In this document: positions 35,699 to 37,781 of the stretch, one piece after another
Layout: every line of letters starts with the position of its first letter
How positions within the stretch are numbered: position 1 is the stretch's first letter
Source: Streptomyces flavofungini
Lineage (GTDB): Bacteria > Actinomycetota > Actinomycetes > Streptomycetales > Streptomycetaceae
NCBI RefSeq assembly: GCF_030388665.1
Contig: NZ_CP128846.1
Span: 5,530,501 to 5,594,500, forward strand
DNA length: 64,000 nt
Reading direction: 5' to 3'
Program-made: the position numbers and the translations under genes
The notes under the pieces: generated by a model
What the model saw: the letters and a program-made list of their open reading frames with translations, nothing else
The model's database searches: none
Told to the model about the DNA's origin: nothing

Positions 35699-35789
35699 TC
35701 CGAGTACCGTTGCCTCCTGGGTCGCTTCGGGGGACCGCGCGGCCGAACTCGATGTGGCTGAGCGGGAGTTATGACCCGAGGAGGCGACG

Positions 35790-37781
35790 GTGGACTGCCC
35801 TGAGTGCCGAGCGGCGCTGCCCGACGAGGATCGCTTCTGTTCGGAGTGCGGCCACGCCTTCGACGGAGGACCCGCCGGCGGAGGGCTCGCGCCCGCACGG
35901 ACGCCGCCGGAGGGCCCGCTCGGGCGCGACCTGCCGCTCACGCGTTGGAGCCGCAGCCCTCGGAGGCTGTCCTTCTGGGACACAGAGCCCTCGCAGGCCT
36001 CGCTCGACCTGAGCCCCCTGCCTTCAGAGCCCGAGGAACCACGGGAGCCCGAGTCGTCCCCGGCACCCACGACCCACAACACCCTCTCCGGCGGCGTGAC
36101 CGACGGCCCGGTGATCCAGGCGGGCACCATCACGGGCGGCGTCACCATCCACAGCGGGGCGCCCGCTCAGGCCGCCGCGGACAACTGGCCCCGCGTCGGG
36201 CGGCTGCACCGCTCCTGGTTCGGGGTGCGCCCCACGAGCCGCTTCGGGGACGAGCCGGGGCTGCCGCCGTACGTGGGGCGGGACTGCGACGGTGAACTGC
36301 ACCGGCTCGTCGGGCGGGGCCTGGCCGAGGGCGGCCTGGTCGTCGTCACCGGCGGGCCGCTGTCCGGGAAGACGTCGACGGCCGCCTGGGCGGCGCTGAC
36401 CGCCTGGGACTCCGTCGGCGCCGATGAACCCCGCGTGCACGCACCGCACCCTGGCGCGGACCTCTCCGACCTCCCCTTCCAACTGCACGACCGCACCGGG
36501 CCCTTCATCGTGTGGCTCGACGACCTGGAGGGCCATCTCGGCCCGCGCGGCTTGACCACGGCGCTGCTCGCCCGCTTCGCCCAGGAGCGGGTCCTCGTCC
36601 TCGCCACCATGCGCGACAAGGCGTACGACGAGCACCGCTTCGGCGAAAGACCGGCCGCCCGCGTCCTCAGCGGCGCCCACACCGTCGAGCTGAGCCGCCG
36701 CTGGAGCGACGCGGAGCTGCGGCGGCTCGGGGAGGCCGACGACCCGCGCCTCGCGGACGCGCGGGAGTGGCGCGGGAAGCGAGGCGTCACCGAGTACCTC
36801 GCCCTCGGCCCCGAGCTGTGGGACGAGTGGCGCAGGGCCCGCCGCGCGCAGGCGCACCCGCGCGGTCATCTGCTGGTGCGGGCGGCCGTGGATCTGGCCC
36901 GGTGCGGGCTGCGGCAGGACGTCCCGCTGCCGGTGCTGAGCGCGGTGCAGGAGCTGTACTCGGAGTACTCGGCGCAGAACCCGCACGCGGTGCTTCCCGG
37001 TGAGAGCGAGCTCTTCGAGGACGCCCTCGCCTGGGCCACCCGGCCCCGGTACGAGGCGACGGGCCTGCTCGTCCCCGGTGCGACGGAGGGCACGTACCGG
37101 GCGTACGGCTCCCTCGTCGCGGACGCCGTCCGCTCCGGCGCGCTCGGAGCGGTGCCGGACGAGGTGTGGGCCGATGTGTGCACGGTGGGGAGTGCGCACG
37201 GCCTCGACGTCGCGCCGGTGGCCGAGGCGTGCCGCGCCGCCCTGGCCTCCCGTGGGGCCGAGGGCGACATCGACGCGTGCGTCGTCCTCGGCATCGCCAC
37301 CGAGTTCGCGGGCGACGTGTCGGAGGCGGAGGGCTGGTACCGCAAGGCCGCCGACCAGGGGCACGCCGGAGCCTGCAACCAGCTGGGTCACATCCTCGCG
37401 GGCCGGGGCGCCGCCGTGGAGGCGATCCACTACCTGGAGCAGGCCGCGGCGGGCGGCTGCCAGGACGCGTACGTCACCCTGGGCAAACTGCACCGCGACC
37501 GCGCCCGCCACTGGCTCACCAAGGGAGCCGAGGCCGGTGACCCGCAGGCCGCCTTCCACCTGGCCGAGCTGCTCCTGCGGCCGGGGCGGGTGGAGCGGTC
37601 CGTCCACTGGTACCGCGAGGCGGCCGAGGCCGGGCACCGCGACGCGGGCTTCGCCCTGAACGTCCTGCGGGTCGGGATCACACTGCGTCCGGAGCGGGAG
37701 GACAAACCGGCCAAGAGGCGTCGCCCCGCCCCTCCCACCCCACGCCCCGACGTTCCCCCCACCCCGCCCGCCTCCCGCTGA
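35790..37781 (+). CDS. Zinc ribbon / RHIM-like motif / P-loop / Sel1-repeat protein
   Basis: The 663-residue protein is not a named gene. Residues 3-20 form a zinc ribbon (Cys3, Cys6, Cys17, Cys20). A disordered region follows. Residues about 99-121 read LSGGVTDGPVIQAGTITGGV, with a V-I-Q-A-G core like RHIM-type amyloid signalling motifs found in Streptomyces NLR-like proteins. Walker A GGPLSGKT is at 188-195 and a Walker B-like FIVWLDD at 239-245, so a STAND-like or AAA ATPase part spans about 130-450. Sel1/TPR repeats (AEGWYRKAADQGHAGACNQLG, EAIHYLEQAAAGGCQDAYVTLG, RSVHWYREAAEAGHRDAGFAL) occupy about 490-626. The GTG has GAGGAGG upstream. A defence or signalling role is inferred. Confidence 0.8.
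   Translation: MDCPECRAALPDEDRFCSECGHAFDGGPAGGGLAPARTPPEGPLGRDLPLTRWSRSPRRLSFWDTEPSQASLDLSPLPSEPEEPREPESSPAPTTHNTLSGGVTDGPVIQAGTITGGVTIHSGAPAQAAADNWPRVGRLHRSWFGVRPTSRFGDEPGLPPYVGRDCDGELHRLVGRGLAEGGLVVVTGGPLSGKTSTAAWAALTAWDSVGADEPRVHAPHPGADLSDLPFQLHDRTGPFIVWLDDLEGHLGPRGLTTALLARFAQERVLVLATMRDKAYDEHRFGERPAARVLSGAHTVELSRRWSDAELRRLGEADDPRLADAREWRGKRGVTEYLALGPELWDEWRRARRAQAHPRGHLLVRAAVDLARCGLRQDVPLPVLSAVQELYSEYSAQNPHAVLPGESELFEDALAWATRPRYEATGLLVPGATEGTYRAYGSLVADAVRSGALGAVPDEVWADVCTVGSAHGLDVAPVAEACRAALASRGAEGDIDACVVLGIATEFAGDVSEAEGWYRKAADQGHAGACNQLGHILAGRGAAVEAIHYLEQAAAGGCQDAYVTLGKLHRDRARHWLTKGAEAGDPQAAFHLAELLLRPGRVERSVHWYREAAEAGHRDAGFALNVLRVGITLRPEREDKPAKRRRPAPPTPRPDVPPTPPASR

What the first reader, a model, noticed from the sequence alone, without database searches (positions are those of the whole stretch)
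35790..37781. RHIM-like amyloid motif in a zinc-ribbon P-loop Sel1 protein
LSGGVTDGPVIQAGTITGGV (about 99-118) has the [VI]-Q-x-G core of RHIM-type amyloid motifs that in multicellular bacteria sit at the ends of NLR-like (STAND) receptors and pass on a cell-death signal. It is followed by a Walker A (188-195) and Sel1/TPR repeats, the receptor plan. An N-terminal zinc ribbon before the motif is unusual. No effector with a matching motif is next to it.
Basis: partly seen in the sequence, partly recalled or inferred. Interest (0 to 1): 0.75.

Follow-up and report, generated by a model that had tools for sequence, protein, structure and literature searches.

The report
Orphan STAND receptor with amyloid-type motif
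A Streptomyces gene encodes an immune-receptor-like protein carrying a short self-assembly-type motif that recurs at the tail of a small helical protein elsewhere in the same genome, which suggests a receptor-effector pair like those behind cell death in fungi and other multicellular bacteria; no experiment has tested this.

Summary
The motif core V-[VI]-Q-A-G-T-I is almost invariant in orthologues inside an otherwise poorly conserved linker; structural matches of the model include STAND proteins (SAMD9, 6mfv, Avs4/5, CED-4). 'RHIM-like' is not supported: no Pfam RHIM match, and a published BASS3 (RHIM-related) peptide does not fit the motif profile. It belongs to another Streptomyces class (probably BASS2; not testable here). 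That class sits where amyloid signalling requires: near the C-terminus of proteins without a Walker A, or upstream of a Walker A (31 of 32 loci read). At least six same-strand effector-receptor neighbours occur in 61 genomes. The window's own genome holds one 144-aa helical protein ending in the motif, 1.5 Mb away: the likely partner in trans. Related receptors have the same helical domain fused in front (41 of 123). At its fixed locus (mazG-receptor-P450-rpf-eno) the motif has been exchanged more than once for a second one, which recurs at the C-terminus of nucleoside-phosphorylase-type proteins. Amyloid formation, toxicity and trigger are inferred. New variant of a known kind.

The parts
35790..37781 (+). 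Receptor gene, 663 aa, GTG start
   Evidence: homologues
35778..35784 (+). Ribosome-binding-site-like CGAGGAGG stretch before the GTG
   Evidence: read; not tested
35793..35861 (+). N-terminal Cys4 zinc ribbon (residues 2-24)
   Evidence: Pfam PF13240 above cutoff
35862..36077 (+). Variable, Pro-rich linker predicted disordered (residues 25-96)
   Evidence: pLDDT below 50 for 26-127; pairwise identity 0.46 in the clade
36078..36152 (+). Amyloid-type signalling motif, class A, residues N97-H121
   Evidence: profile matches; conservation
36111..36131 (+). Motif core V108-I114 (VIQAGTI)
   Evidence: pairwise identity 0.97 in 11 orthologues; the receptor of the adjacent pair in L073 has the same VIQAGTI
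36285..36689 (+). STAND-type P-loop NTPase core (residues about 166-300)
   Evidence: structure model and Foldseek
36351..36374 (+). Walker A GGPLSGKT, residues 188-195
   Evidence: G188, S192, G193, K194, T195 invariant in 23 aligned rows
36507..36524 (+). Walker B-like IVWLDD, residues 240-245
   Evidence: sequence; W242, L243, D244 invariant in 23 aligned rows
37212..37676 (+). Sel1/TPR helical repeats, residues about 475-629, presumed sensor
   Evidence: Pfam Sel1 above cutoff; helices, block pLDDT over 90 to about residue 590 and 76-85 after it

Best explanation
The gene encodes an orphan STAND/NLR-like receptor of a bacterial amyloid-signalling (BASS-type) cell-death pathway. Proposed working: (1) the C-terminal Sel1/TPR repeats sense an unknown signal of infection or stress; (2) the P-loop NTPase then oligomerises the protein; (3) the clustered linker motifs (N97-H121) fold into a small amyloid nucleus; (4) this templates the same motif at the C-terminus of the 144-aa helical protein encoded 1.5 Mb away (L069:8383-8817); (5) the clustered helical bundles harm the membrane or otherwise stop the cell. 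Shown here: receptor architecture and modelled fold, motif conservation, the same motif class at the tail of the helical protein, adjacent effector-receptor neighbours with this class in relatives, and fusion of the same helical domain to the front of related receptors. Inferred: amyloid formation, templating, the pairing in trans, toxicity, and the trigger.
For: Motif class A is found where such signalling needs it: of 32 loci read (the own-genome four and 28 returned), 15 have it within 25 residues of the stop of a frame without a Walker A (two of these frames are only 71-72 aa), 16 upstream of a Walker A (67-251 residues), 1 neither. Own genome: window receptor, paralogue P0125, NB-ARC receptor P0123, and P0122, whose tail RNTISGGVQHGNVIQARTVGDVTLG ends the protein. 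Same-strand effector-receptor neighbours in at least 6 of 61 genomes: G008, G012, G028, G032, G036, G048; in L073 the effector frame ends at 1705, the receptor frame starts at 1710 and holds VIQAGTI. An HMM of the effector's N-domain (118 proteins) finds it at the front of 41 of 123 receptors. Of the 120 listed P0122 homologues 116 have the motif within 45 residues of the end. Models: helical bundle plus disordered tail for the effector; Foldseek matches of the receptor include SAMD9, STAND-TPR 6mfv, Avs5, Avs4, CED-4. The effector lies in a SNF2-SWIM-effector order that in G036 continues with a motif-bearing receptor; in the own genome no such receptor was seen after it.
Against: No fibril or toxicity data. 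The effector model has no significant structural match (best E 0.9), so a Bell/HeLo-like killing domain is not shown. The own-genome effector motif reads QAR where the receptor reads QAG. Two or three other receptors in the genome carry the class and could be the effector's partner instead. The window motif is internal (97-121), behind a zinc ribbon. The effector class is common (its profile matches 44 of 61 genomes), so its presence beside class-A receptors says little. Many Foldseek matches rest on the repeats or on other AAA-type ATPases, with low TM-scores. PADLOC gives only a weak hit, mad8 at E 0.0012.
Confidence: 0.68

Rival explanations
1. The motif is an ordinary docking peptide: receptor and effector meet through a short contact, without amyloid templating.
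For: AlphaFold2 leaves the motif unstructured in both proteins. Sequence cannot tell a docking peptide from an amyloid nucleus.
Against: The same short sequence class, rather than two complementary ones, is on both partners, near the C-terminus of effectors and upstream of the NTPase of receptors. For a related class tested in print, a BASS3 fusion forms foci that are lost in Gln-to-Pro mutants (passages of PMC9815663).
Confidence: 0.17
2. The receptor works alone or with other partners; the 144-aa protein belongs to one of the other motif-bearing receptors (P0123, P0124, P0125), and the window motif only drives self-assembly.
For: Receptor and effector are 1.5 Mb apart; several receptors share the class; effector motif QAR against receptor QAG.
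Against: No motif-bearing receptor was seen next to the effector in this genome, and close homologues of the effector are listed for other species of the receptor's clade (flavofungini, lasiicapitis, aurantiacus, spectabilis; alboflavus is not among the 120 listed).
Confidence: 0.3
3. A genuine RHIM/BASS3 member.
For: The tetrad I-Q-A-G resembles [VI]-Q-x-G.
Against: No Pfam RHIM match up to E=1; published BASS3 peptide -0.8 bits against the profile; the residue after Q is Ala and the downstream N and Q are missing.
Confidence: 0.04
4. A housekeeping regulator: zinc ribbon for nucleic-acid or protein contact, NTPase and Sel1 scaffold, unrelated to defence.
For: It sits at one fixed chromosomal place between conserved genes in 24 of 24 named loci found; no defence gene was recognised beside it.
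Against: Patchy presence (E<=1e-50 in 13 of 101 Streptomyces genomes), exchange of N-terminal domain and motif at that place, and effector-type partners do not look like housekeeping.
Confidence: 0.1

Closest known systems
Bacterial amyloid signalling sequences (BASS1-10), NLR-associated, of Dyrka et al. 2020
   Same: Short shared motif at the N-terminal side of an NLR and the C-terminus of a small helical effector (Bell), adjacent genes, mainly actinobacteria and cyanobacteria (passages of PMC7889193; the 2020 paper itself is not held).
   Different: Window receptor and effector are unlinked; the motif is internal behind a zinc ribbon. Class probably BASS2: PMC9815663 says the 3-mer ARD occurs in BASS2 (passage), and some members here read VVQARDI, VIQARDI, VIQARDV (L111, L130, L131); not tested by profile.
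RHIM / fungal PP / BASS3
   Same: Gln-Gly core and, for the named motifs, a role in death signalling.
   Different: Profile and Pfam tests negative.
STAND NTPases with TPR/Sel1 (NB-ARC, nSTAND3, Avs4/5, SAMD9, CED-4)
   Same: P-loop NTPase followed by helical repeats; Foldseek matches.
   Different: Pfam STAND models only below cutoff for P0001.
Fungal PUASM: PNP_UDP-associated amyloid motif
   Same: Relatives' second motif (class B) is at the C-terminus of PNP_UDP_1-type proteins and upstream of STAND NTPases.
   Different: Sequence GDHxDFRxGTFxGPVxG, not the published FxGxGxQxxGxGxF (passage); no match at E<=0.001 in the window's own genome.

Membership tests
NLR-associated bacterial amyloid signalling (BASS-type) receptor | STAND/NLR NTPase plus repeat sensor | tested here: met
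   Structure model and Foldseek; Sel1 above Pfam cutoff; STAND Pfam models only below cutoff
NLR-associated bacterial amyloid signalling (BASS-type) receptor | Conserved short motif on the N-terminal side of the NTPase | tested here: met
NLR-associated bacterial amyloid signalling (BASS-type) receptor | Same motif at the C-terminus of an effector-like protein | tested here: met
   P0122 in the own genome; 116 of its 120 listed homologues; that it is an effector is inferred
NLR-associated bacterial amyloid signalling (BASS-type) receptor | Effector gene adjacent | tested here: not met
   Not for the window; met for at least six neighbours in relatives
NLR-associated bacterial amyloid signalling (BASS-type) receptor | Motif forms cross-beta fibrils and seeds | not testable with these tools
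   needs peptides
NLR-associated bacterial amyloid signalling (BASS-type) receptor | Match to a BASS1-10 profile HMM | not testable with these tools
   profiles and paper not held
RHIM | Match to the Pfam RHIM model | tested here: not met
   no RHIM row, E up to 1
RHIM | [VI]-Q-[VIL]-G-x-x-N core (recalled consensus, from no call) | tested here: not met
   window reads IQAGTIT
BASS3 | Similarity to the published peptide ORT49035.1 103-123 | tested here: not met
   -0.8 bits against the motif profile
Bell effector domain (for P0122) | Small helical bundle with a hydrophobic helix | tested here: inconclusive
   Five helices in the model; highest 18-residue hydropathy 1.44 at residues 5-22; no significant fold match; Bell model not held

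The most novel reading that the evidence does not exclude
One receptor gene at a fixed core locus has been rewired repeatedly between two cell-death outputs by exchange of a roughly 25-residue amyloid-type motif: class A plugs it into a small helical (pore-like?) effector, class B into a PNP-superfamily (nucleotide-depleting?) effector, while the NTPase and sensor stay orthologous. The window is the class-A, trans-acting, zinc-ribbon state.
Probability: 0.42. Interest if true: 0.78.

Novelty: new variant of a known kind. Interest (0 to 1): 0.57.

Why it matters
If true, a bacterial immune receptor can be re-aimed at a different kind of killing protein by changing a peptide of about 25 residues, without the partner genes being neighbours. 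That would make the specificity of amyloid signalling testable in one set of orthologues, and would mean that searches restricted to adjacent effector-receptor genes miss part of these pathways. It also ties Streptomyces receptors to PNP-type effectors, the effector class of the fungal PUASM systems.

Tried and rejected
RHIM/BASS3 identity: rejected. PADLOC: nothing strong for P0001 or P0122. Fold search of the effector: no significant match. Literature strings VVQAG, VIQAG, VVQAR, VIQAR, VVQGR: 320 papers, the 20 listed look unrelated by title; the other 300 were not seen. Class-A co-occurrence with the effector across genomes was not computed formally: the effector class is too common to tell much. 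Amyloid predictors (PASTA, ArchCandy, PCFG): not available. The match reported at the own paralogue with stops inside is an alignment effect; the ORF P0125 is intact. A first position reading of L110 was unsound because its contig ends early; reread with the same class.

Full report
Observation. Window 35790-37781 (+) encodes 663 residues from a GTG. A zinc ribbon (Pfam Zn_Ribbon_1, 26.0 bits against a cutoff of 25) and Sel1 repeats (35.5 against 30.7) are above cutoff; STAND (nSTAND3) and TPR-S models match only below cutoff. The quoted motif is residues 99-118 and Walker A is 188-195.

Fold. The AlphaFold2 model from 23 aligned rows (mean pLDDT 73.9) gives an ordered NTPase and repeat part, and pLDDT below 50 for 26-127, which holds the motif. 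Foldseek against the PDB lists SAMD9, the STAND-TPR protein 6mfv, Avs5, CED-4 and Avs4 among 36 matches with E<=0.001; many of the others are Sel1/TPR proteins or AAA-type ATPases. TM-scores are low (0.13-0.24 by query length in the listed rows), so the match is to the plan rather than to one close structure.

Motif conservation. phmmer found 308 homologues (E<=0.001) among the 7,994 candidates scored; 120 are listed, and those with a named source are nearly all Streptomyces. In the 11 rows of the nearest clade (P0001, P0003-P0012; 10 of 11 with the ribbon, P0003 without) mean pairwise identity is 0.97 over V108-I114 and 0.75 over N97-H121, against 0.46 in the linker before, 0.44 after, 0.61 in the ribbon and 0.82 in the NTPase. 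Over 23 more distant rows N97 and V108 are invariant and Q110 and G112 are at 90% or more.

Motif identity. The RHIM-related bacterial motif in print is BASS3; a tested Frankia peptide is given in PMC8086366 (section 13 read). It scores -0.8 bits against the window's motif profile, where the genome's effector tail scores 41 and the heads of two other receptors of the genome 31 and 19. Pfam RHIM does not match. I therefore call the window motif class A, not RHIM. PMC9815663 (passage) states that the 3-mer ARD occurs in BASS2; some class-A members read QARD (L111, L130, L131). BASS2 is my best guess, untested, because the paper that defines BASS1-10 is not held.

Where class A occurs. A profile of 24 peptides (two of them from this genome: the window and its paralogue) finds in the own genome at E<=4.2e-6: the window gene; an intact paralogue P0125, whose motif begins at residue 4-5; the tail of a 144-aa protein P0122; and P0123, a receptor with NB-ARC above Pfam cutoff. 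A fifth, P0124 (NB-ARC below cutoff), is at E 0.024; three more matches at E 0.7-1.8 are not counted. The backward control has three matches, none better than 0.83. In 61 Streptomyces genomes class A matches 28, with 65 matches. Of 32 loci read (own four, and 28 that one search returned), 15 have the motif within 25 residues of the stop of a frame without a Walker A, 16 upstream of a Walker A, 1 (L123) neither; two of the 15 are frames of 71-72 aa that may not be genes. Of 25 small-frame matches 17 overlap an effector-domain match, a lower bound because only 39 of 105 listed effector-domain matches were entered.

Neighbours. Same-strand effector-receptor neighbours lie in G008, G012, G028, G032, G036 and G048; in four (G008, G028, G036, G048) both partners match the class-A profile at E<=0.001, in G012 and G032 the receptor does and the effector is called by its domain profile. 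G003 has two class-A matches on opposite strands 0.6 kb apart, G026 two on one strand 3.7 kb apart. In L073 (G028) the effector frame ends at 1705 and the receptor frame starts at 1710, with a motif whose core is VIQAGTI, as in the window.

The candidate partner. P0122 has no Pfam or PADLOC match up to E 0.1. Its model is five helices (3-106) and a low-confidence tail that holds the motif; no PDB match is significant. Of its 120 listed homologues 116 have the motif within 45 residues of the end; P0172 and P0239 have decayed copies, P0219 falls just short of the cutoff, and in P0230 the motif is followed by a longer tail. An HMM of the N-domain of 118 of them finds that domain at the front of 41 of 123 receptors: the effector domain is fused to the receptor in a third of those examined, and in the window's clade the ribbon stands there instead. 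In G036 the order is SNF2-SWIM-effector-receptor; in the window's genome SNF2-SWIM-effector is kept and no homologue of that receptor follows. This leaves the effector free for receptors elsewhere; which one it serves is inference.

Locus. All 24 named loci found (L031-L054, one pattern-based scan) have mazG just before the family member, and the 22 whose contig reaches that far have P450, rpf and enolase after it; the P450 is inverted in L039. Only genes of the window were looked for, so small genes in between are not excluded.

Motif exchange. At that one locus the profile scan gives class A only in 11 of 24, class B (GDHxDFRxGTFxGPVxG) only in 9, both in 3, none in 1. One of the three (L042) has only a marginal A match overlapping B, and L045, counted as none, shows a class-A motif in the pattern scan. 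On a tree of the NTPase part of 23 of these loci plus the window (L045 dropped out for lack of an NTPase match), the labels A and B need at least 4 changes, fewer than in shuffled labels, so the classes are partly clustered by descent. L038, whose class-B copy is a divergent one, lies in a 100/99-supported group with four A rows. Labels use a stricter cutoff (A 12 with the window, B 9, both 1, none 2; L037, none there, is both).

Class-B partner. In 199 Streptomyces genomes class B matches 16. Nine of these (G001, G016, G033, G049, G068, G097, G104, G159, G169) carry it in a relative of the window's receptor, and in all nine I read another class-B copy at the C-terminus of a phosphorylase-like protein. 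Pfam was run on two of the nine: PNP_UDP_1 at 124 and 120 bits against a cutoff of 25.1; PADLOC lists both under an effector model named PN-superfamily at 62-65 bits. Of the other 190 genomes 7 have any class-B match: one holds the same phosphorylase (G131), in one the copy read is not at such a tail (G080), five were not read. Taking all 7 as positive, Fisher p is 1.0e-11 (4.5e-12 with the 6 small frames), not corrected for shared ancestry. Other class-B receptors exist in some of these genomes, for example beside the phosphorylase in G104, so the pairing with the window's family is likely, not shown. ATP nucleosidases as phage-defence effectors (CBASS, Detocs) are mentioned in a meeting report (PMC9966839, passage); that these are PNP-type is recalled, not read.

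Literature. The listings show no paper on this receptor family; what was read is passages, plus one section of PMC8086366. The 2020 BASS paper with its tables was not available, so members of class A or B may already be listed there.

Verdict.

Noticed in passing
L140, L142, L143, L144, L161, L162, L164, L165, L166: Phosphorylase-like proteins (PNP_UDP_1 confirmed by Pfam in L140 and L161) ending in motif class B (GDHxDFRxGTFxGPVxG), shared with STAND receptors including relatives of the window gene; resembles fungal PUASM in arrangement, not in sequence.
   Followed up: partly
L055:5019-6944 (-): Intact paralogue of the window receptor in the same genome, motif right at the N-terminus with no domain before it, TPR repeats.
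   Followed up: partly
L070:6861-9272 (+) and L071:6006-8288 (-): Two further NLR-like receptors of the same genome with a class-A motif near the N-terminus; the first has NB-ARC above Pfam cutoff.
   Followed up: partly
L069:2932-8817; L102; L103; L106: Order SNF2-SWIM-effector in all four; G036 (L102) has a motif-bearing receptor next, while no homologue of it is seen in the window's genome (L069) or in L103 and L106.
   Followed up: partly
L112 (frame of 548 aa): Class-A motif near the C-terminus of a larger frame without a Walker A, perhaps a different effector type.
   Followed up: no
P0014-P0016, P0020 and similar homologues: Class A and class B motifs in tandem in one receptor, in 14 of 123 by pattern, as if able to signal to two effectors.
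   Followed up: no
window:37819-39105: The cytochrome P450 after the receptor is well kept (83-95% identity) in the 22 loci that reach it, whatever the receptor's motif; inverted in L039.
   Followed up: no
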